Under the pieces are notes generated by a model, which saw only the letters and a program-made list of their open reading frames with translations, was not told the DNA's origin and searched no databases. Shown piece by piece: positions 9,723 to 55,989 of a stretch of DNA of 56,222 bases. The stretch is from Deltaproteobacteria bacterium (GTDB lineage: Bacteria; Desulfobacterota; Desulfobulbia; Desulfobulbales; Desulfocapsaceae): contig JAJRQL010000230.1 of NCBI GenBank assembly GCA_024280265.1, positions 1 through 56,222 on the forward strand, read 5' to 3'. Numbering within the stretch: the first letter of the stretch is position 1; every line of letters starts with the position of its first letter. Made by a program: the position numbers and the translations under genes.

Positions 9723-9751
9723 GATATGACGGTTTGAGAAGGAGGTCTTTG

Positions 9752-9997: not shown

Positions 9998-10037
9998 GGT
10001 ATTCTCCAGTTAAGATGATGATGCTGAAATTCTATCC

Positions 10038-10223: not shown

Positions 10224-10256
10224 AATACGCCCTCTATATGTATAAAATCATAGTTA

Positions 10257-10396: not shown

Positions 10397-10457
10397 TAGT
10401 TAACAGCTTTTTCTCTACCCTTAAGAGTTCTAAATGTAGAGCAGTAATCCCAGAATG

Positions 10458-40160: not shown

Positions 40161-40811
40161 GTTTCTTTGTTATGGCTTGTCGGGAGGGTCTATGTGGCTC
40201 GCCAAACTCTCCCAACTACACCTCAGTCCACAGGGTCCATTTCGGACAAAGGGATGTTTCATTTTGGAACTTCAGCGTTGTGTCAACTTTTTTTTTCTAT
40301 AGTCTACAGTGCCCGCAGACCTGGTTTGTGGTCTTGTTTCACAATGAAACGTGGGTTGCCGTTTTCATGATCAAATAGTTTCTTCCTGAAAGATCCTCTG
40401 TTTTGCCAAGGTAGTTATGTCCTTATCTGCCTGATTCACCGATGTTTAACTGAGTACATTTCTTTTTTCTATATAAGTGAATCCTTTGGCACGTCCATTG
40501 CTTTAAGTTCCCTGTTCCATATCTGGAGAGGCAGGTAATTCTTGAATTGTCATGTTGAAATCCAGGTACATTTTAAAAAGTGTGGTGATGAGTTGCTGCG
40601 CTTATAAGAGTATGAATCTGTCCCAGTCAGTGGAGTATGGCGGGGGGCATCATGTTGGTTGTTCGTCTGGTGAAGGCGCCGAGAGTGAAGGATTCAGGCT
40701 GAAGATTATAACAGGAGTAGAGAAACATGAAGAGAGGAAAAGGCGAAGAAAAACGAATGAATGGTGCAATAATGTCAGTTGTGTTGAAGGATTAATGGAG
40801 GAGGGAATATT
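40161..40811. other. 650-bp regulatory gap upstream of the sigma54 operon
   Basis: No gene is supported. It contains the sigma54 promoter at 40486-40502, and 136 bases before that a small dyad GTTTC-ACAAT-GAAAC (40336-40350) that could be an activator site. The leader from the promoter to the first gene is about 300 bases long; an ORF at 40552-40857 overlaps the permease start out of frame and looks non-coding. Confidence 0.5.
40486..40502 (+). promoter_or_regulatory. Near-consensus sigma54 (RpoN) promoter
   Basis: TTGGCACGTCCATTGCT matches the -24/-12 consensus TGGCAC-N5-TTGC exactly, with the GG and GC doublets 12 bases apart. Sigma54 promoters need an AAA+ activator; one is encoded at the end of this cluster (48968-50335). 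Confidence 0.8.
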
Positions 40812-41750
40812 ATGTTACATATGTATTTGCCCATTGCAGGAAACAGCGTCAATGTAATCCTGATTTTAGGTCTTGGCGGTTTTGTGGGATTGTTGTCAGG
40901 TATTTTCGGCGTTGGTGGAGGGTTCTTAATGACACCTTTGCTGATGATGTTTGGTATTCCGCCAACGGTGGCTGCCGCATCAGATTCTAATCAGATTGTG
41001 GGGGCTTCAACTTCCGGGACTCTGGCTCATATGCGTTTGGGAAATGTGGATGTCCCCATGGGAGTGGTGCTTCTTATAGGTGGTGTTGGAGGTGGTACTG
41101 TCGGGGTGCAACTCATTAAGCTGCTTCGTGCCATGGGGAATGCTGATTTCCTTATCGCCATCACCTATGTCATCATGCTTGGTGGCGTTGGCGGCTATAT
41201 GTTCTGGGAAAGTCTTCAGGGCTTGAAAAAGGACAAGCAGGGAATGGTGGCAACTGTTCAGGCCGAGGAGAAGGAGGCTGTCAAAAGTGGCAAGACGTTT
41301 TTGCAGCGCCTTCCGCTTCAGTATAAATTTGAGAAGTCCGGATGTGAAGTTTCCATGCTTGTTCCGTTATCCATTGGAGTTCTGGTTGGCATTCTAGCAG
41401 CCATAATGGGTGTTGGAGGTGGTTTCATCATGGTTCCTGTCATGGTGTACTTACTGCGGATGCCGATGCATGTTGTGGTTGGAACTTCTCTGTTTCAGAT
41501 TCTGTTCACCTGCATCAATGTAACCATAATGCAGTCCTATTCCAACCACACAGTGGATTTCGTTCTGGCTGTACTTCTGCTCCTGGGCTCAACGATTGGG
41601 GCTCAGGCAGGGACAGCGGTTTCAAAACGTCTCAAGGCGGATCAGCTGAAGATAATGTTGGCAAGCTTGGTACTACTGGTTTGTGCCAAGATGACAGCGG
41701 GACTTTTAATGACTCCTGCCATTATGGTAGCCCTGAAAGGAGGACATTGA
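40812..41750 (+). CDS. TauE/SafE family permease (putative sulfite/organosulfonate exporter)
   Basis: The 312-residue protein has two homologous halves, each opening with the family glycine motif: GLLSGIFGVGGGFLMTPLLM (about 24-43) and GILAAIMGVGGGFIMVPVMV (about 196-215). About eight membrane segments are visible, with a soluble central loop (about 135-175). TauE/SafE proteins are proposed anion exporters for sulfite, sulfoacetate or related compounds. GGAGGAGGG precedes the ATG. It is the first gene behind the sigma54 promoter and ends one base before the next gene. Substrate unknown. Confidence 0.88.
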   Translation: MLHMYLPIAGNSVNVILILGLGGFVGLLSGIFGVGGGFLMTPLLMMFGIPPTVAAASDSNQIVGASTSGTLAHMRLGNVDVPMGVVLLIGGVGGGTVGVQLIKLLRAMGNADFLIAITYVIMLGGVGGYMFWESLQGLKKDKQGMVATVQAEEKEAVKSGKTFLQRLPLQYKFEKSGCEVSMLVPLSIGVLVGILAAIMGVGGGFIMVPVMVYLLRMPMHVVVGTSLFQILFTCINVTIMQSYSNHTVDFVLAVLLLLGSTIGAQAGTAVSKRLKADQLKIMLASLVLLVCAKMTAGLLMTPAIMVALKGGH

Positions 41751-41751
41751 G

Positions 41752-42540
41752 ATGAATTTGATGAGAGTTTTCAAAATTACGATTGTTAGTTTTCTGGGGG
41801 CGTGGCTGTTGATTCCAGTCCTGGAACTTTCTGCAGATGCTGCAGAAAGTGATGTGTCACTTGAGCTTGCCCTGGACACCATTGAGATATCCACGTTCTA
41901 CAATGGCACAACTCTGGAAGTGAGCGGTGAGGTCGCAGTGGCTGATGACGTTGTTCTGCTGGTGAGTGGTCCGAGAGAAGAGGTTCACCTGAAGGAAAAA
42001 GGTAAGGTCGCCGGTTTTCTGTGGATGAACAAAAATGATGTCATATTGGAGAATACACCTGCGGTTTATATGGTTTACAGTCCTGAAGGGAGCAGTGAAA
42101 AGTATGTCTCTTCCAAGTTGGGTATCGGGTACCAGGCGCTGCTTACAGACATCTCCATTATACCAGCGTCTGCTGATAAGGCTTTTGTTTTTGGGGAATA
42201 TGTGAAGCTGATGGAACAGTCTGGCGTCTACGCTGTTCATGCTGCAACTGTTCAGTATGGCGTACCTGAAAATGGCATGAAAAGTTTTAAGGCTGTACTT
42301 GTCATTCCATCAAAAATGGCAGCAGGGACATACCGTGTAGAAGCCATTGCTTTGAAAGATGGCGCTGTTGTGGATCGGACTCGGTCAGAGTTGACTCTCG
42401 AGCTTACGGGACTTCCAGCTGTTATCTCTTCCCTGGCTTATGGGCGGCCCCTGCTGTTTGGTTTTATGGCGGTATTTATTGCCATTGCAACTGGGTTGCT
42501 GATCGGGGTTGTTTTTAGAGGCGGCGGTGGCGCTCATTAA
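41752..42540 (+). CDS. TIGR02186 family (Alph_Pro_TM-like) exported membrane protein
   Basis: The 262-residue protein has an N-terminal signal or anchor helix (8-26) and an extracytoplasmic beta-rich domain, with IEISTFYNGTTLEVSGEV, VVLLVSGPREEVHLKEKGKVAGFLWMN and IPSKMAAGTYRVEAIALKDG. It ends in a C-terminal helix (about 235-257). This pattern matches TIGR02186, a family of unknown function that often lies beside TauE-like permeases. The adjacency here agrees, so the two may form one transport or sensing unit. The start ATG lies one base after the permease stop. Confidence 0.75.
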   Translation: MNLMRVFKITIVSFLGAWLLIPVLELSADAAESDVSLELALDTIEISTFYNGTTLEVSGEVAVADDVVLLVSGPREEVHLKEKGKVAGFLWMNKNDVILENTPAVYMVYSPEGSSEKYVSSKLGIGYQALLTDISIIPASADKAFVFGEYVKLMEQSGVYAVHAATVQYGVPENGMKSFKAVLVIPSKMAAGTYRVEAIALKDGAVVDRTRSELTLELTGLPAVISSLAYGRPLLFGFMAVFIAIATGLLIGVVFRGGGGAH

Positions 42541-42571
42541 AGTGAATTTGTTACGAGGAACAGAAGAGCAA

Positions 42572-45136
42572 ATGAGAAATTTTCTACAGCAGTTTGCTAA
42601 GCGCTTTGTCAGGAAAGAAAAGAGCAGCATAGCATTTAAAGTGTTATTTGCCGATTTTAAGAAGAGCCTGGAGTTAAACAATCAGATTCTGGATATCATT
42701 GGTGATGCCAATGATAAACTGAGCGGCGATTATATCTTTGATGAGCACTATATCCACACTACCTGTGAACAGCTGACGGGTCTGCTGCGAGAACTCATTG
42801 TGACCATTAATCACCTCACATCCCAGAAGTACCCTGGACTGTTTAACAGTTTTCATCGGATAGAGGAAGATCTGACTCTTATTCTGCAAGGAAAGGTTCT
42901 GTCACAGGATATACCATTAACCCTGCCGTATTCTGAGATCACCAGGGATCATATTGACGCTGTGGGAGGAAAAAACTGCCATATTGCAGAGATTGGTTCG
43001 TATCTTGGCCTGAGAATACCCAGGGGATTTGCAATAACAACTTCTGCTTTCGAGTTGTACTGGAAGGCAGGGGGCCTTGGCGAGCCTGTAGCTCGGATTA
43101 AGGAACAGTGGCTTGGTGAGAAGCTCTCTTTATCAGAGGCATCTTTAAAAATCCAGGAGCTTATTTTTAAGACTCCTGTGCCGGATATCCTGGAGAAAGC
43201 GATTCTTGCGGCAGTAACAGAGGTTGTTGGAAAGGATGGTCCGTGTGAACCCTGTTTCGCTGTCCGCTCCAGTGCCCTTGGGGAGGATGGTGTTACATCC
43301 TTTGCCGGGCAATACCAGAGTTGTTTGAGTATTTCTCCGGACCAGATTTCCGGTGCTTATAAGCAGGTAGTTGCCAGTCTCTACAGTCAGCAGGCCATGG
43401 AATATCGGTTGAAAAAAGATTTCCGGCCTGAAGAGATCATGATGGCTGTCGCCTGTCAGTTGATGATACCTGCTAAAGTCAGTGGGGTTATGTACACCTA
43501 CGACCCGTTACGGCCTGAGGATGAAACCATACTGATCAGCTCAGCCTGGGGGCTTGGAGAGCCTGTTGTCTCTGGTGCAGTTCCCACGGATCATTTTGTC
43601 CTGGAGAGGAAACCTCCCCATAAGGTAATTGAGATGCAGATTGTGTGTAAGGATGAGTCTATGGTTATTACGGAACACGGTGGACCTACCAGCGCACCTG
43701 TCCGAGAAGAGCAGCGTATGGAACCAAGTCTGAAGGCCAGGCAGTTACATGATATGGCTGAGATAGGGATTTTACTCGAAAGATACTTCAGGGCTCCTCA
43801 GGATGTTGAGTTCGCCATTGACCAGGCGGGGCAGATTGTTCTCCTGCAGTCCAGACAGTTGCAGCTCTACTATGATCGCCCACCCCGGGCCAGTGATCTT
43901 TCCGGGCTTGATGGGAGATATCCTGTTCTTCTACGGGGAAAAGGTGTTGCCGCCATGGAAGGTGTAGCCTCCGGACCGATATGGATCCTGGAAGCAGGGA
44001 AAGATTTGGCTGATTTTCCGATGGGCGCTGTTCTGGTGGCCAGGTACGCCTCACCACAACTTGCAAAGGTGATCCATAAAGCAGCGGGGTTTATCACAGA
44101 CATTGGTTCTACAACCGGGCATCTGGCGACGGTCGCCAGGGAATTTCGGGTTCCGGCTCTTTTTAATACCGGAGATGCCACTACCATTCTGAATGATGGC
44201 TGCGAAATAACCATGGATATAGAGTGCCTGACCATCTATGAAGGGCAGGTTTCGGAGCTGGGTCACTACAGTCTTCAAGAGGAAGTCATTGAGGACATGT
44301 TTGAATACCGTCAGTTACGCCGGATTCTTAGAAAGATAGAGCCACTTAATCTTGTCGATCCTGAGAGTGACAACTTTAGCCCGGAGCACTGTAAAACCTA
44401 CCATGATCTCACAAGATTTATCCATGAAAAAGCTGTGGAAGCCATTATTGATATCGGCTTTTATCATGCTCACCACAGGGACACTCAGGCCGGGAAACTT
44501 CTATGGGAGTATCCCCTTGATCTTGTGATTATTGATGTGGGTGGAGGGGTCGAAGGAGAGCATACCAAGGGCGTTCTGGCTGAAGAGATCAATTCTGTTC
44601 CCATGCAGGAATTGCTTCGGGGCATGTCCTGGCCAGGAGTTTGGGATATGACACCATCCAGGGTTGATGTTAACAGTTTTATGTCAAGTCTTACCCGGAC
44701 AGTGCCAATACAAAACAGCAGCCCCCAAGATGTTGGACGCAATCTGGCCGTTATTTCAAGTGAGTATACCAACATAAATTTTCGTCTTGGCTACCACTTT
44801 ACGGTAATTGATGCCTATATCTCGGAGAACATTCTTGATAATCATCTGTATTTCAGGTTTTCCGGTGGAGTAACAGATACCGTGAGGCGTTCCCGCCGAA
44901 TTAAGCTTCTTGGCGTCATTTTGTCATATTACGATTTTCTCTGTGAGACTCATGGGGATACGATGGTGGCTCGTCTGAAGAGAATGGACAGGAAAAGTAT
45001 GTTGAAACGGCTGTTTCTGCTGGGGCTGCTTGTCGCTTTTACCCGACAGCTGGACGTTAAAATGATAAACGACGCCAGAATAGATCAATATTTTAAAGAA
45101 ATACAAACCATAATGGAGGAGAGCAATGACGATTGA
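42572..45136 (+). CDS. PEP synthase-like protein (pyruvate/PEP-binding plus swivelling His domain) with atypical C-terminus
   Basis: I start at ATG 42572 (MRNFLQQFAKRFVRKEK), because the longer frame runs into the upstream gene; this gives 854 residues. A helical N-terminal region of about 110 residues precedes an ATP-grasp PPDK_N domain (ITRDHIDAVGGKNCHIAEIG, FAVRSSALGEDGVTSFAGQY). The swivelling PEP-utilising domain follows, with His about 516 in DIGSTTGHLATVAREFRVPA. The last 270 residues (LWEYPLDLVIIDVGGGVEG, FRFSGGVTDTVRRSRRI) do not show the PEP-binding barrel motifs of true PEP synthase. It may be a phosphotransfer or regulatory enzyme. It overlaps the receiver gene by 11 bases. Confidence 0.75.
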   Translation: MRNFLQQFAKRFVRKEKSSIAFKVLFADFKKSLELNNQILDIIGDANDKLSGDYIFDEHYIHTTCEQLTGLLRELIVTINHLTSQKYPGLFNSFHRIEEDLTLILQGKVLSQDIPLTLPYSEITRDHIDAVGGKNCHIAEIGSYLGLRIPRGFAITTSAFELYWKAGGLGEPVARIKEQWLGEKLSLSEASLKIQELIFKTPVPDILEKAILAAVTEVVGKDGPCEPCFAVRSSALGEDGVTSFAGQYQSCLSISPDQISGAYKQVVASLYSQQAMEYRLKKDFRPEEIMMAVACQLMIPAKVSGVMYTYDPLRPEDETILISSAWGLGEPVVSGAVPTDHFVLERKPPHKVIEMQIVCKDESMVITEHGGPTSAPVREEQRMEPSLKARQLHDMAEIGILLERYFRAPQDVEFAIDQAGQIVLLQSRQLQLYYDRPPRASDLSGLDGRYPVLLRGKGVAAMEGVASGPIWILEAGKDLADFPMGAVLVARYASPQLAKVIHKAAGFITDIGSTTGHLATVAREFRVPALFNTGDATTILNDGCEITMDIECLTIYEGQVSELGHYSLQEEVIEDMFEYRQLRRILRKIEPLNLVDPESDNFSPEHCKTYHDLTRFIHEKAVEAIIDIGFYHAHHRDTQAGKLLWEYPLDLVIIDVGGGVEGEHTKGVLAEEINSVPMQELLRGMSWPGVWDMTPSRVDVNSFMSSLTRTVPIQNSSPQDVGRNLAVISSEYTNINFRLGYHFTVIDAYISENILDNHLYFRFSGGVTDTVRRSRRIKLLGVILSYYDFLCETHGDTMVARLKRMDRKSMLKRLFLLGLLVAFTRQLDVKMINDARIDQYFKEIQTIMEESNDD

Positions 45137-45515
45137 GCAAACCAGTATTTTGATCCTGGATGATGAACCCATCGTGAGTAAACGATTAAAACCCTCCCTT
45201 GAGAAAAAGGGATATGAAGTGGAGACTTTTACCCGGAGTTCCGAGGCGTTACAGAGGGTGACGGAGAGACAGTTTAATATAGTGATAACTGATCTTAAGA
45301 TGGAAGGTATGGATGGTATGCAGTTTCTCACTGAAGTGAAAGAGCTGAATCCAGATACCGAGGTGATAGTCATGACCGGATTTGCGACCATGGCGACAGC
45401 AAAGGAATCATACAATAAAGGCGTTTTTGATTTTCTGGCTAAACCCTTCAAGTTAGGGGAGATTTTCGAGGTTATTGCCAAGGCTGAAAAAAAGATTAAA
45501 AGGCTTGAGAGGTGA
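45126..45515 (+). CDS. Single-domain response regulator (CheY-like receiver)
   Basis: The 129-residue protein is a lone receiver: acidic pair DDE at 12-14, phosphoacceptor Asp about 56 in IVITDLKMEGMDG, conserved Thr about 84 in VIVMTGF and Lys about 106 in LAKPFK. No output domain is present, so it must act by protein contact, perhaps within a phosphorelay with the kinase at 47512. It overlaps the PEP-synthase-like gene and is followed four bases later by a Usp-like gene. Confidence 0.88.
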   Translation: MTIEQTSILILDDEPIVSKRLKPSLEKKGYEVETFTRSSEALQRVTERQFNIVITDLKMEGMDGMQFLTEVKELNPDTEVIVMTGFATMATAKESYNKGVFDFLAKPFKLGEIFEVIAKAEKKIKRLER

Positions 45516-45519
45516 AGAA

Positions 45520-46329
45520 ATGTTAAAAACACTGCTGTATATAAATGAAGATCTGGCATCAAGTATTGCTCTGCGTTTTACAGATTATCTGAGTCGTTTT
45601 GTGAACCTTTCACTCTTTATTGCCCATGTGGAAGAGCCGGATGAAAATGAACAGGTGGGTACCGGTTGGGTTCGTCGCACCTGGGAAGATGGTGTGGCTT
45701 CCAGTGGCAAGAGGCTTGTAGATCGAATGCTGCGAACCGAAAATATAAACTGTTCTCTTGCCGGACGTCCTAAGGTTTTTGTTGGTGAAATGGAAAAAGA
45801 GATGATTCTCGAGTTGCGCAATGGCTTCTATCAGTTGTTTATAAAGGGCTATCTGGATTCTGCTAATCCAGAGCCGTTTTACGATCTTATCAGCTCGTCA
45901 CTTTGTGTAGAAACATCATGCCCGATGTTGGTGGTGAAAAATCTCTCACTGAGCAAGAAGTGTGCTTTGCTCTGTGCAGACAGCGTGGATCCAAGGGTGC
46001 TTGTGGAGCAGTCCATGAAGGTAGTTGGTGAGTCCAGCTTTGAAATCGATATCGTTTATTTTAAATTCCAGGAAAGTAGTCAGGTTCAGATTCTGGACCG
46101 CCGAGAGGGGGGAAACAATTTAGGGGAGACCGAGTCTCTTCTGGCAGCAGCCGGTAAAACTGTTGTGAATACCACGGTACTGACCGGTGCGCCGGAACAG
46201 GTTAGTGATTATTTGAAAGAGTATGCACTGGTGGTTTCCACCATGCCAAAGAGAAAGAGTATACATATACACGTGTTGGCCCATTCGCTGGCATCAGTAC
46301 TTTTGGTACGAGATACTGCACAGAAATAA
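45520..46329 (+). CDS. Usp-like (universal stress) protein, divergent
   Basis: Starting at ATG 45520 with GAGGTGAAG just upstream, the product has 269 residues in two weak Usp-like halves. The first contains LLYINEDLASSIALRFTDYLSRF and ends with CVETSCPMLVVKNL; the second contains CALLCADSVDPRVLVEQSMKVVG and ends with HSLASVLLVRD. The CP(M/V)LVV and VLLVR endings fit the last strand of the Usp fold. The ATP-binding GxxGx9GS motif is not clear, so it may not bind ATP. It shares a transcript with the receiver and the next Usp-like gene. Confidence 0.6.
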   Translation: MLKTLLYINEDLASSIALRFTDYLSRFVNLSLFIAHVEEPDENEQVGTGWVRRTWEDGVASSGKRLVDRMLRTENINCSLAGRPKVFVGEMEKEMILELRNGFYQLFIKGYLDSANPEPFYDLISSSLCVETSCPMLVVKNLSLSKKCALLCADSVDPRVLVEQSMKVVGESSFEIDIVYFKFQESSQVQILDRREGGNNLGETESLLAAAGKTVVNTTVLTGAPEQVSDYLKEYALVVSTMPKRKSIHIHVLAHSLASVLLVRDTAQK

Positions 46330-46361
46330 CAATAATAAATCAGATTTAAAAGGGGAGTGGA

Positions 46362-47210
46362 ATGAAAATATTAGTCGCTTTGGATGGAAAATTCTACAGT
46401 AGGGGGATTGTAAAAGAAGTGGCCCGCTTGTCCGAAAGTACCCTCGCTGATGTGGTCTTTCTTGGTGTTCAGGATTCGGAAACTGAGGTGTCACAATCGC
46501 AGCAGATGGTTCTTCATGAGTGTCAGCAGGACCTGTACAGCTATTTCAGGCCTGATGAACTACCTTATGCCGATTTTTCCCTTGAGAAGTGGCAGAAGAT
46601 CGCTAGTGGAGACTGGAAGGTGTCGGCTACAGGAATGAAAGAATTCACACTTCGAATCAGAAGTGGTAGTGTGGCCAAAGCGGTTGTTGACGTTGCCGGT
46701 GAAATGGAGTGTGATCTGGTGGTCCTGGGCTGTGATCTTAAGCATGGCTGTGACTGGGATGGTGATATGAACGTCCCGCTTCGGATAGCGGAAGATGCAC
46801 CCTGTTCGGTACTGGTAATAAAACAGAGCGGTAATACCCGGGAAATTGTATCCATTCTTGACCAGTCTGAGGTTCATCAGGAGGCTATAGAAATGGTAAA
46901 TCAGCTTGTAACGCTTCATAGTGCAGATCTTACAATTGTGGGTGTTCAGGAAAAAAATGAAGATAAAAAGGATCAGATGGAACAGCGTATGGTTGAGTTA
47001 CTGAAATACTATAATGATCGGGCAGTGAGTGCGTGGGCTAAAGTGATAAATAGTGCCATGGTGACAGACTACGTGACAGAATCTTCCCAGAACGCAATAA
47101 TTGCCCTCTGGATGGGAGGTAAGCAGTCTCTTTTGAAACGGCTGTTTTCTCACAGTATGGTGGATAAACTTCTCAATACTTCGAAATCCTCAGTGTTTAT
47201 TCTCCGGTAG
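46362..47210 (+). CDS. Universal stress protein, tandem Usp domains
   Basis: The 282-residue protein begins MKILVALDGKFYSRGIVKEV, the first strand and loop of a Usp domain. The first domain ends with CDLVVLGCDLKHG and APCSVLVIKQ (about 127-153). A second, more diverged domain begins REIVSILDQSEVHQEAIEMV and ends LNTSKSSVFILR. Usp proteins bind nucleotides or sense stress; no exact function can be given. AAAGGGGAG lies before the start. It is the last gene before the palindrome at 47233. Confidence 0.75.
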   Translation: MKILVALDGKFYSRGIVKEVARLSESTLADVVFLGVQDSETEVSQSQQMVLHECQQDLYSYFRPDELPYADFSLEKWQKIASGDWKVSATGMKEFTLRIRSGSVAKAVVDVAGEMECDLVVLGCDLKHGCDWDGDMNVPLRIAEDAPCSVLVIKQSGNTREIVSILDQSEVHQEAIEMVNQLVTLHSADLTIVGVQEKNEDKKDQMEQRMVELLKYYNDRAVSAWAKVINSAMVTDYVTESSQNAIIALWMGGKQSLLKRLFSHSMVDKLLNTSKSSVFILR

Positions 47211-47232
47211 AGGTCTGTAGTGATAAGTCCTG

Positions 47233-47272
47233 TGCAGTGCTCTGATTTTTTTAAAAAAATCAGAGCACTGCA
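47233..47272. repeat. 40-bp perfect palindrome
   Basis: The left arm (47233-47252) reads TGCAGTGCTCTGATTTTTTT and the right arm (47253-47272) is its exact reverse complement with no spacer. The A/T tract lies at the centre, unlike an ordinary terminator. It lies 23 bases past the second Usp-like gene. It may act as a processing hairpin, a bidirectional terminator or a protein site. The rest of the 47211-47511 gap has a small dyad GTTACCTGTAAC (47466-47477) and nothing else I can support. Confidence 0.85.
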
Positions 47273-47511
47273 TATGCATATGGTCTTTCGTCGGTTTTTC
47301 TGGGGACAAGAATAGATGGTAGAGATTTCGTGTGATTAAAGAGTACATCAGTTCCACCCTCTGGGTGAATAAGTGGTAACTGTCATTGTAAAACTGTTAC
47401 GCCTGGTATGCAGGTGAGTATCGTGAATGTCTTTGTGGAAAAATGTAGTCATTGTCTGATCAATGGTTACCTGTAACTGACTCTGGAGTTTCTCCAGGGA
47501 GAGAGAACTTT

Positions 47512-48966
47512 ATGAAAATATCATGTTTTTTTAGTGCATGTACCATCAGGCAACGTTTGATTTTTATTAACTCCATGACCATCGTTTTTGTTTTTGTCCT
47601 TATTTCAATTTATACTTTTCAGTTGATTACGGTGGAGAATAACCTGGTGACAATGGAACGGGTTGATGATCTCTTCAGCTCCATCCTTGGTCTACGCCGC
47701 TATGAGAAAAATATCATGTTGAAGCTTGATGAGGATAATGTTGCCAAAGCCACACAGTCAATATCAATAATTGAGATGTACTTAAATTCTTTAAAGCCTG
47801 AAATAATGACAGAAGAGGGAAACAGGCTGTTTATTCGTCTTGAGAAAGATTTTAACAGATATGAAACTACATTTAATCGCTGGTGTTCAGGAGGGGGATG
47901 TCTTGAACAGCTGCCTGGCAGTGCGGATTTTCGTCTTATCCGTCAGCAGGGCCAGGAACTGGTGGAGTCTGCCGTAGAACTTGCCCGGCTTAATCGAAAA
48001 ACAATAAGTGGGAGGTTCAAAACCATTCTGTTCTGGTTGACTTTTTTACCGGCCATTGTTTTTTCAGTTGGAGTGTTGCTGTTTTTTTCTCAGGTCAAAA
48101 ACATTCTGGATCGTCTCGGCTCTCTCAAAAAAGCAACTAAAAGCCTTGCAGCTGGTAAGTTTAAACCTGTCGTAATCACAGGTTCTCCGGATGAAATAAC
48201 CCAATTGATACTAAATTTTAACCAGATGGGAGTAGAGCTTGAAGAAAAACAGGAACAGTTGATTCAGTCAAAAAAGATGGCTTCCATTGGTACATTTTCA
48301 TCGGGTATTGCCCATGAGATAAATAATCCTCTTAATAATATTTCACTCTCCACAGATACCCTGTTGGAAGAAATAGACACCATGGGTATGGAAGAGAGGA
48401 AAGAGATTCTTGATGACATTATGGCCCAAACTGAACGTGCCAGCAAGATAGTGCGGAATCTGCTCGATTTTTCGCGAGCACAGTCAGCGGAAATGCAGGT
48501 ATTGTATATTGACTATATCCTGCATACCACAATGGATCTTATTTCCAATGAGCTACAGATTCATCAGATAGAGCTGGTGAAAAAGATTGCAGACAGAATG
48601 CCCCAAATAAATGGTGGTTTACAGCAGTTGCAGCAGGTATTCCTGAACCTGGTAATTAATGCGGAACAGGCCATAGGGGAATCCGGAGAAATAATTGTAA
48701 AATCATATGTTTTTGATGATAATTATATTCGTACAGATATTATTGATAATGGTCCCGGGATCATTCAAGAGAATATGGAGCAGATTTTTGACCCGTTTTT
48801 TACAACCAAGGAGGCAGGAAAGGGGACAGGGCTGGGCCTGTCCATAGTCTATGGTATAGTAAAAAAGCATGGCGGCTATATTGAAGTAGCTTCTGTTGAG
48901 GGTAAAGGTACGACGTTTTCGGTGTATCTTCCAACTTACCAAGGAAATAAGAAAGGTACAAACTGA
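47512..48966 (+). CDS. Membrane-bound sensor histidine kinase
   Basis: I choose the ATG at 47512 (MKISCFFSACTIRQRL), preceded by AGGGAGAG, giving 484 residues. A membrane helix (about 17-39) is followed by a periplasmic domain of about 140 residues that is mostly helical, with CSGGGC near its end. A second membrane helix (about 168-192), a HAMP linker, the HisKA box with phosphoacceptor His in SSGIAHEINNPLNN, and the ATPase boxes NLVINAEQA, DNGPGI and GKGTGLGLSIVYGIVKKHGG complete it. It likely phosphorylates the regulator encoded one base downstream. The signal sensed is unknown. Confidence 0.9.
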   Translation: MKISCFFSACTIRQRLIFINSMTIVFVFVLISIYTFQLITVENNLVTMERVDDLFSSILGLRRYEKNIMLKLDEDNVAKATQSISIIEMYLNSLKPEIMTEEGNRLFIRLEKDFNRYETTFNRWCSGGGCLEQLPGSADFRLIRQQGQELVESAVELARLNRKTISGRFKTILFWLTFLPAIVFSVGVLLFFSQVKNILDRLGSLKKATKSLAAGKFKPVVITGSPDEITQLILNFNQMGVELEEKQEQLIQSKKMASIGTFSSGIAHEINNPLNNISLSTDTLLEEIDTMGMEERKEILDDIMAQTERASKIVRNLLDFSRAQSAEMQVLYIDYILHTTMDLISNELQIHQIELVKKIADRMPQINGGLQQLQQVFLNLVINAEQAIGESGEIIVKSYVFDDNYIRTDIIDNGPGIIQENMEQIFDPFFTTKEAGKGTGLGLSIVYGIVKKHGGYIEVASVEGKGTTFSVYLPTYQGNKKGTN

Positions 48967-48967
48967 C

Positions 48968-50335
48968 ATGACAAGCGTTGCGGTAATAGATGACGAGGAG
49001 ACAGCCAGAAAGATGACGGCTCGTATCCTTGAAAAGGCTGGTTATACGGTTGAGAGCTTTGGCAGTGGTTTGCCTTTTCTTCGGAAGATGGAGGTGGAAG
49101 CTTTTGATATAGTTTTCCTGGATCTGCATCTCCCTGATATGGGGGGGATGGAAATTCTCTCCCATATAAAATCCATCCATTGCTGGACTCAGGTAATAAT
49201 TGTAACAGGCTATGGCACAATTGAGAATGCTGTTAAAGCAACTCAGAAAGGAGCTTTTCAATACCTTACGAAACCATGTCGCAGTCACGATATCTGTCTT
49301 ATGGCCGCCCGGGCAGCTGAAAAAATATCATTGCATTGTGAAAATGACATACTTCGGTCACATGTAGATGCCCAGGGACTGTTTCCAGGTTTTATAGGTA
49401 ACAGTAAGGCGATGCAGGTGATTTTTAAGACAATCAGAAAAGTCGCCCAGGTAAATTGCAATGTGCTGCTTGAGGCAGAAACAGGGACGGGAAAACAACT
49501 GACGGCACAGGCTATTCACAATCTTGGGCCTAGAAGAGATGCCCCCTTTGTATACTTTAACTGTGGAGGTTTTACTGATGAGCTTATCTGTAGTGAACTT
49601 TTTGGGCATGAAAAGGGAGCCTTTACCGGAGCTGACAGTTGTAAGATCGGGTTGTTTGAATCGGCTGCCGGTGGAACAGTCTTCCTCGATGAAATCAGTG
49701 AAATGCCCCTGTCCATGCAGGTTAAATTGCTCCATGTTCTCCAGGAGCGGCAGGTGCTTCGTGTGGGCGGAACCCGGCCTGTGGATCTCCATATTCGTAT
49801 TATCGCGGCGACAAACCGGAACCTGAAACAGAGTGTTCAGGAGGTATTGTTTCGTGAAGATCTCTACTATCGCTTAAATGTGGTAACTATTCGACTCCCA
49901 AGACTCAGCGAGCGTAGAGACGATATTCCTCTTCTGGTTCATCATTTTATTGGGCGAGTGAATAAGGCTTTTGGCAGAGAAATCCGGGGAATATCATCAG
50001 AAGCCCTGGAGTTGCTGATGGATTATGATTTTCCAGGCAATGTTCGGGAACTTGAAAATATCATACAACACGCTGCGGCGCTGACTGATGAAACAAAGTT
50101 GATGCCGGAGGATCTGCCAGCAAGACTTCGTAAGGTTCACCAATGGGATAACATTTCCACTGAGTTTGTGGCCATGGAAGAAATAGAGAAACAGTATCTG
50201 GCCCAAGTATTGGCAAAAACCGGGCACAATATAAAGGCTGCTGTCAGTATCCTGAAAATTCCCAGGACTACACTCTGGAGAAAGATAAAAAAATACAATA
50301 TCACTCAGACCTCCCAGTCAGGTAAAGACTCCTGA
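48968..50335 (+). CDS. Sigma54-dependent response regulator (NtrC/AtoC type)
   Basis: Starting at ATG 48968 gives 455 residues. The receiver shows DDEE (9-12), Asp in IVFLDLHLPDMGG and Lys in LTKPCR. The AAA+ domain has Walker A AETGTGKQ, the sigma54-contacting GAFTGA loop in EKGAFTGADS, Walker B GTVFLDEISEMP, and the sensor FPGNVRELEN. A Fis-type helix-turn-helix (HNIKAAVSILKIPRTTLWRKI) ends the protein. It activates sigma54 polymerase after phosphorylation. The only strong sigma54 promoter seen in the window lies at 40486, ahead of the same cluster. It begins one base after the kinase stop. Confidence 0.93.
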   Translation: MTSVAVIDDEETARKMTARILEKAGYTVESFGSGLPFLRKMEVEAFDIVFLDLHLPDMGGMEILSHIKSIHCWTQVIIVTGYGTIENAVKATQKGAFQYLTKPCRSHDICLMAARAAEKISLHCENDILRSHVDAQGLFPGFIGNSKAMQVIFKTIRKVAQVNCNVLLEAETGTGKQLTAQAIHNLGPRRDAPFVYFNCGGFTDELICSELFGHEKGAFTGADSCKIGLFESAAGGTVFLDEISEMPLSMQVKLLHVLQERQVLRVGGTRPVDLHIRIIAATNRNLKQSVQEVLFREDLYYRLNVVTIRLPRLSERRDDIPLLVHHFIGRVNKAFGREIRGISSEALELLMDYDFPGNVRELENIIQHAAALTDETKLMPEDLPARLRKVHQWDNISTEFVAMEEIEKQYLAQVLAKTGHNIKAAVSILKIPRTTLWRKIKKYNITQTSQSGKDS

Positions 50336-50726: not shown

Positions 50727-50790
50727 TAGTGTGACATTATGATTTTATTGATAATGCAGTGTACGCGTGCTGCCAACTTCCAGGATCTGG

Positions 50791-53700
50791 ATGGCCGACG
50801 ATAGTCAGGTATTTCTGAACCGTTGCTTTCTGTTTGATATTGAAACAAACGAGAAGGGTGAGATCTACTCTCTGGGTGCCTGGTATAACGGGAAAAAATT
50901 TAACAGCCGGCAAGGTCAAAAGATCAGGAGAGAAGAGCTTGCCGAATTTGATAACTTCGGGCGTGGCGCGGAGTTTGTTCTTGGTCATAACATCCTTTCT
51001 CACGATCTTCCATGTCTGCGTGAATTTGAGCCGAGCCTCGCCCTCCTGCAGAAGCCGGTGGTTGACACTCTTTACCTCTCGCCCCTGGCCTTTCCGGAAA
51101 ACCCTTATCACAGGCTGGTCAAAAACTACCAGATAGTCAGGGACAGCATTAATAACCCGGCAGAAGATGCCATATTGGCCGGGAAAGTTTTCAGCGAACA
51201 GTGGGAGGCGTTTTTACAGTTACTGGCCGGTGGTTCCGACACCCCTCTGATTTACAGAGGATTTTTTCACCAGGTTGACAGGTTTGCCGGGATTTCTGCT
51301 GCTTTTGAAGCGATGGGGGTACCGCTTGTGGCGGGGGATGACCTTTACGAGGCCTTTTCCTGGCGTATCCAGAAGGATGTCTGCAGGGAGGCTCTGGAAA
51401 GACTCACCGAACAGCTTGTTGATGGGAGAATGGAGCACCCGCCACTGGCCTATGTTCTCGCCTGGTTAATCGTTTCTGGAGGGAATTCTGTCCTGCCACC
51501 CTGGGTTCGGCATCATTTCCCCATCGTGTCCACCATTCTCCATCAGTTACGGGAACAATCCTGCACTGATCCACACTGTGACTATTGTAAGACAAATCAT
51601 AATCCCAGGTTTTTTCTAAAGGAATTTTTTGGTTTTGAGGAGTTTCGGCCTACGCCAACCACTGAAGACGGGCAGAGTCTGCAGGGCGCCATTGTCAGTG
51701 CTGCCGCCCGCAATTCATCTCTTTTTGCCACCCTACCCACTGGTGGAGGGAAAACCCTCTGTTATCTGCTCCCTGCTCTGATGAGGTATCGTCGGCGCAA
51801 CAGTCTGACCATCGTTATTTCTCCATTGCAGGCCCTGATGAAAGATCAGGTGGATAATTTCGCGAAACAGACCGGGACCACCCTGGCCGCGGCCATTAAT
51901 GGAATGCTCTCAATGCCTGAGAGAGGTGAGGTGATGGACGGAGTTCGCCAGGGAGACGTTGGCGTTTTGTATGTCTCGCCGGAACAGTTGCGCAATCGCT
52001 CCTTTGTTCAGACAATCAGTCAGCGTGAAGTCGGTGCCTGGGTTTTTGATGAGGCCCATTGCCTCTCAAAATGTGGGCATGATTTTCGACCGGATTACCT
52101 CTATTCAATTCGCTTTATACGTGAATTTGCCCAGCAGGGAAAGTGTAAAATCCCACCTGTTCAGTGTTTTACTGCCACTGCAAAGAAGGATGTGCAGTCT
52201 GAAATTGTCGATATAATTGGACGAGAACTTGGCTTGCGTATCTTGATTTTCACTGGCGGTCATGAACGGGATAACCTGCATTATGAGGTGTGGCCGGTTG
52301 ATAAGTATGAAAAGGACCAGGCGATCCTGGCTCTACTGAAAAATCGTTATGACAACTCTGGTAGTGTTGTCATTTACTGTGCAACTCGTAAAAACACAGA
52401 AAATTTAGCTGATTTTCTGGCGGCTGCAGGCTACCGGGTTGAAGCCTTTCATGCCGGCCTCGAGCCTTTTGTCAAAAACCGTATCCAGAACGATTTTATC
52501 GCAGGTGAGATTCCGGTCATCTGTGCTACCAATGCCTTTGGAATGGGGATTGACAAGGACGACGTACGGATGGTGATTCATGCAGATATTCCAGGTTCTC
52601 TGGAAAATTATCTTCAGGAGGCGGGACGTGCAGGGCGGGATCGTGAAGAGGCTGAATGCATTCTTATCTTCACTGAGCAGGATGTGGAAGGTCAGTTTCG
52701 AATGAGCAGTAGTTCGAGGTTAACGCAGAGAGATATCGCCCAGATTCTGAAGGGTTTGCGTCATGCCGCAAAGGATAATGGTCAGGTGGTATTAACCTCC
52801 GGAGATATTATCAGGCTTGACAGTGTTGATATCGATGAGGATGAATTTGGCCAGGATAGATACACTAGGGTCAAGACTGCTGTCTCTTGGCTGGAGAGGA
52901 ACGGTTTTCTCCATCGGGATGAGAATAACACTAATGTTTTTCAAGGGAAACCACTGGTTGGTAATCTGGAAGAGGCTGAAAAAAAGATCGGAAAACTTGG
53001 TCTTTCCAGGAGGCAGCGTAAGCGCTGGTTGGATATTCTGACCGTCCTGATGGAAATCCCTCCAGCCAAAGGATTCAGTGCCGACGATCTTGCCGTTCTG
53101 GGATCTTTTGGCACCACAACCAATGACTCCGAGCAGGGAACCGAGACCCAGAGAGTGCTTCGGACCCTGGAAGATATGGCCAAACAGGGCCTTCTTTCAA
53201 AGGAGACTGTTTTAACAGCTTATATCCGTTTTAAGGTCAAAAACAGTTCGGAGAAATTTCTCAAACGGTTCTGCCTGGTGGAAAATGATTTTCTGAAAAT
53301 TCTTCAAGAGACTGTACCGGATGTGGAGCTGGATAAACAGCTGGTGCTAGATTTAAGACAAGTCAATCAACGCCTGATCGATATGGGGCACGGTTATAGT
53401 ACACTTGGGAGTCTGAGCCTGGTTCTTCGGGGCTTAAGTCGTGATGGTAAAGGGTTAGCGGGTCAGAAAGGAAGCGTCAGTATTAAATCAAGGGGTAACA
53501 ACCTCTTCTCTATTATGATCCACCGGGACTGGAAGTCCCTGCGTAAAACAGTCGCTATCCGTCAACAGGCCGCCCATGTGGCGCTTCAAGTTATTCAGTC
53601 CCAACTGCAGGCAACGGCAGGGCCAAGTGCTTCCTTACTGGTGGAATTTACCATGGAGAGGATCGTTGAAGGGCTCAATAAAGATCTGGTACTGTTTTCA

Positions 53701-55989
53701 GAACTTAGAGATCCACTAGCCGCCTCGGAACGGGCTTTGACGTTTATGCACGAGCAGGGAGTGATAATACTGCAGCAGGGGCTGGCTGTCTTCAGGCAAG
53801 CCATGACTATCACCATCGAAGAGGAGGCTAGGGGGAGGCGTTACACCAAGTCGGATTTTGAACCCCTGAAAACCCACTACTCCGAAAAAAATTTTCAGAT
53901 CCATGTTATTAATGAGTATGCCCGTTGTGCCATAAAGAAAATAAGTGTGGCCATGAATTTGGTGCAATCGTACTTCAATGATGAAAAAAATGAATTTGTA
54001 AAACGATTTTTTCCTGGTAAGAAGGAGCTGCTCGAGCGGGCCACCAGTGAACAGTCCTATCAGCGAATTGTTGAGGATTTGTACAACCCGGCTCAGGAGA
54101 GTGTAGTCGCTGCGCCCACTGAGAGCAATATGCTCATCATGGCTGGTCCGGGAGCAGGGAAGACTAGAACAGTTGCCCATCGTGTGGCATATCTGCTCCG
54201 GGTGAAACGGGTGAGACCCCAGGCAATACTGGTACTCTGTTTTAATCGCAGTGCTGCCATCGGCCTGAGGAGGAGGCTGAGGGAGCTGGTGGGTAAAGAT
54301 ATGAGCTGGGTTACAACTTTGACCTTTCATGGATTGGCTTTAAGGCTGACGGGCCGCTCCCTGGTTCGTCACACTGGAGGTGTGCGGGAGGAAGTCGATT
54401 TTTCCAACGTTATCCAAGATGCAGTCGCTCTGCTTAAGGGGAAGTGTGATGTCATAGGATTCGGTGACGATCAGCCGCGGGAGGTTCTGGTAGGCCGGTT
54501 CAGCCATATCCTGGTGGATGAGTATCAGGATATCGATGAGGAACAGTATGAGCTGGTTTCTTTGCTGGCTGGGCGGGAGCTTACAGAAAAGGAAGAGAAA
54601 CTCAGCATCCTGGCAGTGGGAGATGATGACCAGAATATCTATCACTTTCGTGGTGCAAATGTTGATTTTATCAGGCGCTTCAAGATCGATTATCTGGCCG
54701 ATGTCTGTTACCTCACAGAGAACTACCGGTCTACTGCTAATATCATTGCAGTTGCAAACTCGCTTATTGCGCATAACCGGAACAGAATGAAGGGCGAACA
54801 TCCCATTGAGATTAATAGAGCCAGGGCAACCTTACCGGCTGGTGGAAATTGGCAGCTCAGCGATCAGATTGCTTTTGGGAAGGTCCAGTGCCTGCGGGTG
54901 AAGGATAAAATTTCTCAGGCCTTGGTTTTGCTGGAGGAATTACAGCGCTTACAAAGTTTGAGCAGCGATTTTGACATTAACAATTGTGCCATACTGGCTA
55001 GAGAATGGCAGGAACTTGATATTGTACGCGAATTTTTTGAGGCTGAAGCTATTGCGGTGAGCTTGAACTGGGGGAGGAGTGCTTTTCCGAGTCTGACCCG
55101 TATCCGTGAGAATGCCTATCTACTAGACTATCTCCATAATTACAGTGAGGATCAGATCTCCGCTGATGTACTGCTGCAGATTTTACCAGAGCAACTGGCA
55201 AGGGATAATATCTGGCAGAAGAACCTGCGCTCCCTGATCATGGAGTGGCAGAATGAGACGAACAACAGCCCTCAACCGATTGGTCGGGTTGAGAATTATT
55301 TCTATGAATCACTGGTTGACCAGCACCGCTCGAGAAACCTGGAGAACGGTATTTTTCTCTCGACTGTTCATTCGATCAAAGGGCTGGAGTTTGATCACGT
55401 CTTTATCCTCGATGGCAACTGGAAGAAGAAAAGAGGGGAGGAGTTGGAAGAAGAGCGCAGGCTTTACTATGTGGCAATGTCTCGAGCCCGGGAGACCCTC
55501 CAGCTTTTTGACATAGATGGTTCGCAGAATCCACATATAAAGCTTCTTAATAATGAATCTATTATAACTCGTCAATTTTCGCCGGTTCACAAGCAGCATC
55601 GCCAGGTTCCATGCTATGAATTACTTGGAATGAAGGATCTTTTTATAGATTTTGCAGGGAAAAATCAAGACAGTCACCCGATTAATAGCGCTATCAGGGA
55701 ACTGACAACCGGTAGTCGTTTGACAATCAATGGGAAAAATAATGGGCTCTATCTTTTTAATAATGCAGGAATTACTGTGGCCCGCCTTTCAAAAACGGCG
55801 CAGGAAAGGTGGCAGTCCAGGGAAGATACAATAAAAGACATAACGGTCATTGCATTGGCCTGTCGTTACAAGACTGATATTAAGGATCTGGAGTATCAGA
55901 AGCGATGCCGGAGTGACAGCTGGGAGGTCCCTGTTGTTGAGCTGCGCTACTTGGAAGAGGATCCGAGCAGAGGCATGAACTTTGGTTAG
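50791..55989 (+). CDS. DEDD exonuclease-RecQ helicase-UvrD helicase fusion protein
   Basis: I use ATG 50791 with AGGA just upstream; the frame also extends to a GTG at 50767. The 1732-residue product starts with a DnaQ-like exonuclease: DIET (16-19), NILSHD (about 67-72) and NPAEDAILAG (Asp about 126). A CxxxxCxxC cluster near 245 precedes a RecQ helicase with LPTGGGKT (about 315-322), DEAH (420-423) and QEAGRAGRDR. After a middle region of about 450 residues comes a UvrD-type helicase: AGPGAGKT (about 1118), DEYQD (1243-1247), GDDDQNIYHFRGAN and YVAMSRARE (about 1560). All helicase motifs look intact. It probably acts in DNA repair or defence. Confidence 0.88.
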   Translation: MADDSQVFLNRCFLFDIETNEKGEIYSLGAWYNGKKFNSRQGQKIRREELAEFDNFGRGAEFVLGHNILSHDLPCLREFEPSLALLQKPVVDTLYLSPLAFPENPYHRLVKNYQIVRDSINNPAEDAILAGKVFSEQWEAFLQLLAGGSDTPLIYRGFFHQVDRFAGISAAFEAMGVPLVAGDDLYEAFSWRIQKDVCREALERLTEQLVDGRMEHPPLAYVLAWLIVSGGNSVLPPWVRHHFPIVSTILHQLREQSCTDPHCDYCKTNHNPRFFLKEFFGFEEFRPTPTTEDGQSLQGAIVSAAARNSSLFATLPTGGGKTLCYLLPALMRYRRRNSLTIVISPLQALMKDQVDNFAKQTGTTLAAAINGMLSMPERGEVMDGVRQGDVGVLYVSPEQLRNRSFVQTISQREVGAWVFDEAHCLSKCGHDFRPDYLYSIRFIREFAQQGKCKIPPVQCFTATAKKDVQSEIVDIIGRELGLRILIFTGGHERDNLHYEVWPVDKYEKDQAILALLKNRYDNSGSVVIYCATRKNTENLADFLAAAGYRVEAFHAGLEPFVKNRIQNDFIAGEIPVICATNAFGMGIDKDDVRMVIHADIPGSLENYLQEAGRAGRDREEAECILIFTEQDVEGQFRMSSSSRLTQRDIAQILKGLRHAAKDNGQVVLTSGDIIRLDSVDIDEDEFGQDRYTRVKTAVSWLERNGFLHRDENNTNVFQGKPLVGNLEEAEKKIGKLGLSRRQRKRWLDILTVLMEIPPAKGFSADDLAVLGSFGTTTNDSEQGTETQRVLRTLEDMAKQGLLSKETVLTAYIRFKVKNSSEKFLKRFCLVENDFLKILQETVPDVELDKQLVLDLRQVNQRLIDMGHGYSTLGSLSLVLRGLSRDGKGLAGQKGSVSIKSRGNNLFSIMIHRDWKSLRKTVAIRQQAAHVALQVIQSQLQATAGPSASLLVEFTMERIVEGLNKDLVLFSELRDPLAASERALTFMHEQGVIILQQGLAVFRQAMTITIEEEARGRRYTKSDFEPLKTHYSEKNFQIHVINEYARCAIKKISVAMNLVQSYFNDEKNEFVKRFFPGKKELLERATSEQSYQRIVEDLYNPAQESVVAAPTESNMLIMAGPGAGKTRTVAHRVAYLLRVKRVRPQAILVLCFNRSAAIGLRRRLRELVGKDMSWVTTLTFHGLALRLTGRSLVRHTGGVREEVDFSNVIQDAVALLKGKCDVIGFGDDQPREVLVGRFSHILVDEYQDIDEEQYELVSLLAGRELTEKEEKLSILAVGDDDQNIYHFRGANVDFIRRFKIDYLADVCYLTENYRSTANIIAVANSLIAHNRNRMKGEHPIEINRARATLPAGGNWQLSDQIAFGKVQCLRVKDKISQALVLLEELQRLQSLSSDFDINNCAILAREWQELDIVREFFEAEAIAVSLNWGRSAFPSLTRIRENAYLLDYLHNYSEDQISADVLLQILPEQLARDNIWQKNLRSLIMEWQNETNNSPQPIGRVENYFYESLVDQHRSRNLENGIFLSTVHSIKGLEFDHVFILDGNWKKKRGEELEEERRLYYVAMSRARETLQLFDIDGSQNPHIKLLNNESIITRQFSPVHKQHRQVPCYELLGMKDLFIDFAGKNQDSHPINSAIRELTTGSRLTINGKNNGLYLFNNAGITVARLSKTAQERWQSREDTIKDITVIALACRYKTDIKDLEYQKRCRSDSWEVPVVELRYLEEDPSRGMNFG

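What the first reader, a model, noticed from the sequence alone, without database searches (positions are those of the whole stretch)
40486..50335. Self-contained sigma54 regulon: TauE permease, TIGR02186 protein, PEP-synthase-like protein, receiver, two Usp-like proteins, kinase and sigma54 activator
A near-perfect -24/-12 promoter precedes six tightly packed genes, and the cluster ends in a histidine kinase/NtrC-type pair. The pair is the natural activator of that promoter. An anion permease, a membrane protein of unknown function, an atypical dikinase-like protein and stress proteins under one two-component switch suggest an uncharacterised envelope or oxyanion stress response. The promoter and domains are seen; the circuit is inferred.
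Basis: partly seen in the sequence, partly recalled or inferred. Interest (0 to 1): 0.7.

Follow-up and report, generated by a model that had tools for sequence, protein, structure and literature searches.

The report
Sigma54-switched sulfur-anion transporter operon
A six-gene operon for a membrane anion transporter, an unusual phosphate-transferring enzyme and helper proteins appears to be switched on by its own two-component regulator; the same layout and control sites recur in many relatives, but what it transports and why are not known.

Summary
An exact -24/-12 element (40487-40502) precedes six packed genes: TauE/TSUP permease, PF09608 membrane protein, PEP-synthase-like enzyme (PEPd), lone receiver, two Usp-fold proteins. 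An HK/NtrC-type pair follows.

Comparison supports the inferred circuit. A tandem palindrome, GTTTCA-N3-TGAAAC (40256-40270, 40336-40350), lies upstream of the promoter. Two or more such sites (2 mismatches or fewer) lie upstream of the permease gene in 57 of 82 loci, in none of the shuffled or reversed controls. They track P0008-type activators (50 of 60 loci with, 5 of 18 without). No other pair in this draft genome lies within 100 bp.

TauE-PF09608-PEPd-receiver is complete in 67 of 83 loci. PEPd is not a PEP synthase: ATP and histidine residues are kept, but a conserved C-terminal domain without recognised relative replaces the PEP/pyruvate-binding part. A relative sits in a Desulfovibrio locus with the order of the published 'nitrate cluster', where permease, receiver and enzyme mutants share one phenotype (PMC4001038).

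Most likely: a self-contained sulfur-oxyanion transporter with a PEPd-receiver control module. Substrate, direction and phosphoryl step are inferred.

The parts
40256..40270 (.). distal activator-site candidate, GTTTCATTTTGGAAC (one mismatch to GTTTCA-N3-TGAAAC)
   Evidence: 231 bp upstream of the -24 element; similar position in close relatives
40336..40350 (.). proximal activator-site candidate, GTTTCACAATGAAAC (exact palindrome)
   Evidence: 151 bp upstream of the -24 element, 80 bp from the distal site
40487..40502 (+). -24/-12 sigma54 promoter TGGCACGTCCATTGCT
40812..41750 (+). TauE/SafE (TSUP) permease, 312 aa (P0001)
   Evidence: PF01925 165.3 bits, cut-off 32.6
41752..42540 (+). PF09608 membrane-anchored protein with a predicted Ig-like beta-sandwich domain, 262 aa (P0002)
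   Evidence: PF09608 145.8 bits, cut-off 24.5; AlphaFold2 model pLDDT 92; fold comparison
42572..45136 (+). PEPd: N-terminal part, ATP-grasp (PPDK_N), phosphohistidine mobile domain, C-terminal domain without recognised relative; 854 aa (P0003)
45126..45515 (+). lone receiver domain, 129 aa (P0004), phosphoacceptor candidate D56
   Evidence: PF00072; D56 in 76 of 76 aligned
45520..46329 (+). U1, Usp-like protein, 269 aa (P0005)
   Evidence: no Pfam/NCBIfam match; hhalign to U2, probability 98.5
46362..47210 (+). U2, Usp protein, 282 aa (P0006)
   Evidence: PF00582 48.4 bits, cut-off 24
47234..47271 (+). perfect 19-bp inverted repeat between the operon and the HK gene (no T-tail)
47512..48966 (+). 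membrane sensor histidine kinase (P0007)
   Evidence: HisKA, HATPase_c, HAMP; alignment of the sensor part
48968..50335 (+). NtrC-type sigma54 activator: receiver, AAA+ with GAFTGA, Fis-type HTH (P0008)
   Evidence: PF00072, PF00158, PF02954; GAFTGA read

Best explanation
A self-contained, signal-induced anion-transport operon. The HK senses a periplasmic signal and phosphorylates P0008. P0008 binds the two palindromes at 40256 and 40336 and drives sigma54 polymerase at 40487. This makes a TSUP permease with a membrane-anchored extracytoplasmic partner (PF09608), most likely moving a small sulfur oxyanion (sulfite, thiosulfate or a sulfonate). It also makes a cytoplasmic control module: an ATP-dependent histidine phosphotransfer enzyme (PEPd) with a lone receiver, plus Usp-fold accessory proteins. 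Shown by sequence and comparison: promoter, tandem sites, their link to P0008-type regulators, conserved gene set, kept catalytic residues of PEPd and receiver. Inferred: binding of P0008, signal, substrate, direction, and that PEPd and the receiver act on or for the permease.
For: Exact promoter. Upstream regions with a -24/-12 of at most 1 mismatch: 24 of 79; at most 2: 46 of 79; reversed control 0 and 1 (one locus counted twice as L039/L065). Palindrome: at least one site with at most 1 mismatch in 54 of 82 loci (three shuffles 1, 0, 0; reversed 0), two or more with at most 2 mismatches in 57 of 82 (three shuffles and reversed 0). 50 of 60 loci with a P0008-type activator (550 bits or more) have two or more, 5 of 18 without (Fisher p 2e-5, which ignores shared ancestry). 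In the own genome 25 sites with at most 1 mismatch (control 7); only the window pair lies within 100 bp. rpoN match over cut-off. TauE-PF09608-PEPd-receiver in 67 of 83 loci. PF09608 has TauE directly upstream in 29 of 29 loci examined, of 44 matches. H517, K134, R232, D411, E413, Q426 invariant in 24 PEPd sequences. A Desulfovibrio locus with the published nitrate-cluster order carries a PEPd relative. In that cluster permease, receiver and enzyme mutants share nitrate resistance, and cluster mutants were said to be mildly sick on thiosulfate (PMC4001038, table and passages).
Against: No expression, binding or transport data for this operon. The nitrate cluster is a relative, not an orthologue: it has a phosphonate-type binding protein and a phosphatase instead of PF09608 and Usp; the enzyme at L162 is 31% identical; the thiosulfate data are unpublished remarks in that paper. 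11 of 29 PF09608-TauE pairs lack PEPd directly downstream, so the pair can exist without it. TauE loci without the palindrome exist: L115, L116, L121, L129 from other phyla and L048, L077, L079, L117, L122, L127. L075 has the sites but no activator gene in its stretch. The draft genome gave no dsrA over cut-off, although aprA is present and 51 of 56 genomes of the set, the window's included, have dsrA.
Confidence: 0.55

Rival explanations
1. General stress operon: the regulator answers a cell-envelope or energy stress; the Usp proteins and PEPd act in protection, and the permease only exports a toxic by-product such as sulfite.
For: Usp-type proteins (U1/U2 profiles) near PEPd in 47 of 83 loci, and a further Usp gene ahead of TauE in many relatives (5 of 5 tested by Pfam). 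In D. vulgaris a different sigma54 regulator, DVU3305, controls UspA-type genes in a stress response (PMC3333781, passages).
Against: TauE-PF09608-PEPd-receiver is the constant part; Usp genes come and go. No further gene was seen to be constant in the neighbourhood map, but most other ORFs there were not identified.
Confidence: 0.2
2. PEPd is a metabolic or resistance-type phosphotransferase: it phosphorylates a small molecule bound by its C-terminal domain, and the permease moves the substrate or product; the receiver is regulatory only.
For: The architecture (ATP-grasp, mobile histidine domain and a separate third domain) resembles small-molecule dikinases; invariant H, D, R and Y residues in the C-terminal domain could form an active site.
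Against: A lone receiver lies within two genes in 75 of 83 loci, more than a metabolic enzyme would need.
Confidence: 0.25
3. The HK/NtrC pair mainly controls other genes, and the TauE promoter is served by another activator.
For: HK/NtrC lies downstream, past a hairpin; sigma54 activators are many in such bacteria (recalled).
Against: Palindromes track P0008-type regulators; no other close site pair in the genome. Of 15 of the 25 sites inspected, the window's own among them, none besides the window has a -24/-12 of at most 1 mismatch nearby; three have one with 2.
Confidence: 0.07

Closest known systems
Desulfovibrio 'nitrate cluster' DVU0251-DVU0245 / Dde_0597-Dde_0605 (PMC4001038)
   Same: TauE/TSUP permease, lone receiver, HK and PPDK_N plus mobile-domain enzyme in one cluster; locus L162 shows the same order, and its enzyme is a relative of P0003 over residues 24-844.
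   Different: Has a phosphonate-type binding protein and a dual-specificity phosphatase; no PF09608, Usp or NtrC-type gene was found in the 18-kb L162 stretch by my profiles; enzyme 31% identical.
Sigma54-dependent TSUP/PSE transporter operons of D. vulgaris (PMC4641369)
   Same: Nine sigma54 operons there encode TSUP or PSE transporters; one TSUP operon, DVU0132-DVU0133, is bound by two-component activators DVU0110 and DVUA0057 (passages).
   Different: The searched terms for PEPd-type enzymes do not occur in its main text; the activator motif described there was not compared with the one here.
PEP synthase / pyruvate phosphate dikinase
   Same: ATP-grasp domain and mobile phosphohistidine domain with conserved residues.
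   Different: No recognisable PEP/pyruvate-binding domain; a different conserved C-terminal stretch of about 270 residues in its place.
Rifampin phosphotransferase (RPH)
   Same: ATP-grasp plus mobile histidine domain with a third, substrate-specific domain.
   Different: Scores 200.5 bits against a cut-off of 999; in RPH the third domain lies between the other two (recalled), here it is C-terminal.

Membership tests
sigma54-dependent operon | -24/-12 promoter | tested here: met
   exact match, unique in the window; conserved upstream in relatives
sigma54-dependent operon | upstream sites for an enhancer-binding protein | tested here: met
   tandem palindrome, 57 of 82 loci against 0 in controls; binding itself not tested
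sigma54-dependent operon | RpoN in the genome and RpoN-dependent transcription | tested here: inconclusive
   rpoN positions 74-434 over cut-off on one contig, a weak match to positions 1-70 on another; transcription not testable here
NtrC-type activator | receiver, AAA+ with GAFTGA, Fis-type HTH | tested here: met
TSUP / TauE-SafE permease | PF01925 match over cut-off | tested here: met
   165.3 bits, cut-off 32.6
TSUP / TauE-SafE permease | transport of a sulfur anion | not testable with these tools
   no assay; no PDB chain at E up to 1 by phmmer
PF09608 (Alph_Pro_TM) | Pfam model over cut-off | tested here: met
   145.8 bits, cut-off 24.5
NCBIfam TIGR02186 | model score over its cut-off | tested here: not met
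   79.6 bits, cut-off 255.25: a relative, not a member of that subfamily
PEP synthase / PPDK | ATP-grasp and mobile histidine domains with conserved residues | tested here: met
   PPDK_N 254.7 bits, PEP-utilizers 64.5 bits; invariant H517, K134, R232, D411, E413, Q426
PEP synthase / PPDK | C-terminal PEP/pyruvate-binding domain | tested here: not met
   no Pfam match beyond residue 549 at E up to 0.01; best-scoring profile stretches on PDB chains end at or before position 587; TIGR01418 289.6 bits against cut-off 739.75
Rifampin phosphotransferase | NCBIfam model score over its cut-off | tested here: not met
   200.5 bits, cut-off 999
Desulfovibrio nitrate cluster | permease, lone receiver, HK and PEPd-type enzyme together | tested here: met
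Desulfovibrio nitrate cluster | PtxB-like binding protein and dual-specificity phosphatase | tested here: not met
   no such Pfam match among the eight cluster proteins of the window; present at L162
Universal stress proteins | Usp domain | tested here: met
   U2 by PF00582; U1 only by hhalign to U2
Universal stress proteins | ATP-binding motif of the G-2X-G-9X-G(S/T) kind (recalled) | tested here: not met
   a looser pattern, G2X-G6-12X-G(S/T), was found in neither U1 nor U2

The most novel reading that the evidence does not exclude
PEPd and the lone receiver form a new phosphorelay: ATP phosphorylates the mobile histidine (H517) of PEPd, the C-terminal domain docks the receiver or a metabolite, and phosphate passes to receiver D56, which gates or energises the TSUP-PF09608 transporter. 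It would be a PTS-like controlled sulfur-anion transporter built from PEP-synthase and two-component parts, with the Desulfovibrio nitrate cluster as a sister form.
Probability: 0.18. Interest if true: 0.85.

Novelty: new variant of a known kind. Interest (0 to 1): 0.6.

Why it matters
Sulfate reducers carry many TSUP permeases whose function cannot be predicted from sequence (PMC5840216, passages). This operon ties one conserved TSUP subfamily to a fixed partner (PF09608), a recurrent enzyme-receiver module and a testable activator site. It also joins a nitrate-resistance cluster known only from genetics to a wider family of permease-PEPd-receiver systems. If the phosphoryl link is real, it is a new way to control anion transport in bacteria that cause souring and corrosion.

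Tried and rejected
Rejected: PEPd as a PEP synthase (no recognisable PEP/pyruvate-binding domain, far below model cut-offs). Rejected: the 101-aa ORF at 40552-40857 as an operon gene. The leader has a blastn match only in L037 among 13 relatives compared, and tblastn of one relative's Usp against the window gave nothing there.

Led nowhere: the fold of the PEPd C-terminal domain. The model has pLDDT 72 and pTM 0.67, no Foldseek match with E at most 0.001, and VIA-align Z at most 5.7 to unlike proteins; neither a known nor a new fold can be claimed. The PF09608 model (pLDDT 92) looks like a common Ig-like beta sandwich (15 Foldseek matches with E at most 0.001, TM-scores low; best VIA-align Z 9.2, GbpA domain, 94 residues, 2.1 A), which says nothing of function. 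A Cys pair in the HK periplasmic loop was considered as a redox sensor; by eye it is in 12 of 74 aligned kinases, close relatives only, so it is not part of a general mechanism. A signal domain for the HK: none in Pfam. The first promoter scan looked at only 500 bases upstream: 33 of 85 with at most 2 mismatches; it was widened to 1400 bases. Paper searches: PF09608/TIGR02186 names gave 0 papers; combined searches for the gene set gave, judged from listings, the nitrate-cluster paper or nothing that fitted. These are open-licence PMC papers only. Carlson 2015 (PMC4438318) is not held.

Dropped rows: duplicates L057, L065, L133, L134 and other-type loci L053-L055 were left out (L044 also out of 93); loci with too little flank were left out of each count. 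In one search L039 and L065 are the same locus, and L048-L056 were not used. In one search 15 of the 25 own-genome sites were inspected, the window's own among them. The palindrome was first seen by eye in the window and then tested on the other loci. The loci are related, so counts are not independent events. The loci were found through PEPd, so they are not a random sample.
Full report
What is there. The window lies in a draft genome of 281 contigs. The nearest named record by PEPd is a Desulfobulbaceae MAG (87% identity). An exact -24/-12 element at 40487-40502 precedes six genes with gaps of 1, 31, -11, 4 and 32 bases (with start codons as): TauE/TSUP permease, PF09608 protein, PEPd, lone receiver, U1 and U2. 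Then come a 19-bp hairpin without a T-tail, a membrane HK, and an NtrC-type activator with GAFTGA and a Fis-type HTH.

Is it more than chance? Upstream of the permease gene, 46 of 79 sequences carry a -24/-12 with at most 2 mismatches and 24 with at most 1; the reversed control has 1 and 0. In loci that have an extra Usp gene ahead of TauE (Usp by Pfam in 5 of 5 tested) the promoter often lies further upstream, near -480 to -560.

The activator sites. Reading the upstream DNA showed a palindrome, GTTTCA-N3-TGAAAC. In the window it is exact at 40336-40350 and has one mismatch at 40256-40270, 151 and 231 bases before the promoter. Two or more sites (2 mismatches or fewer) occur in 57 of 82 loci within 1600 bases upstream of the permease gene, and in none of three shuffled sets or the reversed set; at least one site with at most 1 mismatch occurs in 54 of 82, against 1, 0, 0 and 0. 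In most close relatives the two positions are nearly fixed (about -232 and -152; L061 and L064 differ); in other groups the pair is often about 42, 65 or 82 bases apart (read by eye). Of 60 loci with a P0008-type activator (550 bits or more) 50 have the pair; of 18 without, 5 do. Of these five, L098 has a split regulator gene and L135 one cut by the contig end, while L075 is a plain exception. In the own genome 25 sites with at most 1 mismatch exist (control 7), and only the window pair lies within 100 bases of each other. Fifteen of the 25, the window's among them, were inspected for a nearby -24/-12: three others have an element with 2 mismatches and none has a better one. This is what a one-target activator would leave. 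Binding itself was not tested.

Conservation of the genes. Of 83 loci with enough flank, 73 have PF09608 directly upstream of PEPd, 73 have TauE two genes upstream, and 75 have a lone receiver close by (one gene before to two after); 67 meet all three. The 16 misses are listed there: some have the same genes in another order (L116, L118, L121), others lack one in the ORF list. The 80 records are mostly labelled as Desulfobacterota-type bacteria; seven are labelled Nitrospirota (4), Myxococcota, Zixibacteria and Terriglobia (1 each). These counts start from PEPd relatives and so are not a random sample. An independent start from PF09608 over 247 genomes of the phylum found it in 39 genomes (0 of 14 control genomes); in 29 of 29 loci examined (of 44 matches) TauE lies directly upstream, and in 18 PEPd directly downstream. 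So PF09608 is a fixed partner of this TSUP type, and PEPd with receiver is a frequent addition.

The enzyme. PEPd matches PPDK_N and the mobile phosphohistidine domain. K134, R232, D411, E413, Q426 and H517 are invariant in 24 relatives. That these correspond to catalytic residues of PPDK is partly recalled; the alignment to solved PEP synthases places H517 at their TSH/TCH motif. Nothing recognisable follows residue 587: no Pfam match, no PDB sequence match in the best stretches, no confident fold match. Yet the stretch is conserved, with 26 invariant columns among 59 sequences, including H47, D48, R51, H54 and H178 of the 290-residue piece, that is H611, D612, R615, H618 and H742. A transferase that keeps the ATP and histidine machinery and swaps the acceptor domain is the simplest reading. 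The neighbouring receiver keeps D12, D13, D56 and K106 in 76 of 76 sequences, so it can presumably be phosphorylated.

A related system with genetics. Two Desulfovibrio strains have a 'nitrate cluster': TauE permease, hypothetical protein, PtxB-like binding protein, HK (a pseudogene in D. vulgaris), receiver, PPDK_N/mobile-domain protein, phosphatase (PMC4001038, table and passages). Locus L162, in the genome of an uncultured Desulfovibrio, shows this order with matching Pfam domains. Its enzyme is 31% identical to P0003 over residues 24-844. In the paper, D. vulgaris insertion mutants of the permease, the hypothetical protein, the receiver and the enzyme grew alike with or without 100 mM nitrate; the phosphatase mutant and the control were inhibited. 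The pooled assay disagreed for the hypothetical protein. The authors suggest a leaky thiosulfate transporter. That permease, receiver and enzyme give one phenotype is the best evidence that they act together; it is carried over here by homology only. The D. vulgaris sequences themselves were not available, so L162 stands in for them by gene order.

How it most likely works. Sensor, activator, promoter and operon form a closed loop that switches on a TSUP transporter with its membrane partner and a cytoplasmic PEPd-receiver module. The circuit is strongly supported by comparison (my estimate 0.85 that P0008 acts at this promoter). That the cargo is a small sulfur oxyanion rests on the TSUP family, the sulfur-metabolising lineage (aprA in this genome; dsrA over cut-off in 51 of 56 genomes of the set) and the nitrate/thiosulfate genetics (about 0.6). 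That PEPd passes phosphate to the receiver is a bold but testable guess (0.18).

Against. The transport direction is unknown. The general-stress reading cannot be excluded, because Usp proteins are frequent. dsrA was not found over cut-off in this draft genome, which may be a gap. TauE loci without palindromes in other phyla, and in some Desulfobacterota-type records, show that the regulation is not universal.

Novelty. Sigma54-controlled TSUP operons (PMC4641369, passages) and the nitrate cluster are in print. In the ten searches made nothing seen described the TauE-PF09608-PEPd-receiver core, its tandem activator site, or the link between it and the nitrate cluster. The searches cover open-licence papers only; passages of five papers were read (PMC4001038, PMC4641369, PMC3333781, PMC10102598, PMC5840216), the rest seen as listings. 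Hence: a new variant of a known kind, with a transferase family whose acceptor is unknown.

Noticed in passing
L053 (own genome, contig C28, locus 4406-12364): A second, different permease-PEPd cluster in the same genome: receiver, 429-aa TauE, 228-aa protein without Pfam match, PEPd paralogue (34% identical), receiver, HK. A similar TauE, about 230-aa protein and PEPd set occurs in L043, L054 and L055.
   Followed up: partly
L162 (3637-13038): A locus with the gene order of the Desulfovibrio nitrate cluster, in an uncultured Desulfovibrio genome.
   Followed up: partly
L087, L090, L092, L099, L106, L108, L112, L126, L134: Two or three PEPd-type genes in one cluster behind a TauE gene; the meaning of the multiplication is unknown.
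   Followed up: no
window 47234-47271: Perfect 19-bp inverted repeat with a T7-A7 centre between U2 and HK; strong hairpin (z -5.2) without a T-tail, so an unusual terminator or an mRNA-stabilising element.
   Followed up: no
window 40503-40811: About 300 bases of leader between promoter and TauE, where many relatives have a Usp gene; blastn match only in L037 among 13 relatives compared.
   Followed up: partly
window 47512-48966: The HK sensor part has a widely shared RRYEKN-type motif, and a Cys pair in a loop (CSGGGC) seen by eye in 12 of 74 aligned kinases, close relatives only.
   Followed up: no
window 50767-55989: 1740-aa fusion of a DEAD-box, RecQ-like helicase part (residues about 305-625; RecQ by eye) and a UvrD-like helicase (about 1107-1579) in one polypeptide.
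   Followed up: no
own genome G000: No dsrA over cut-off in a 96% complete draft, although aprA is present and 51 of 56 genomes of the set have dsrA: an assembly gap or a true loss.
   Followed up: no
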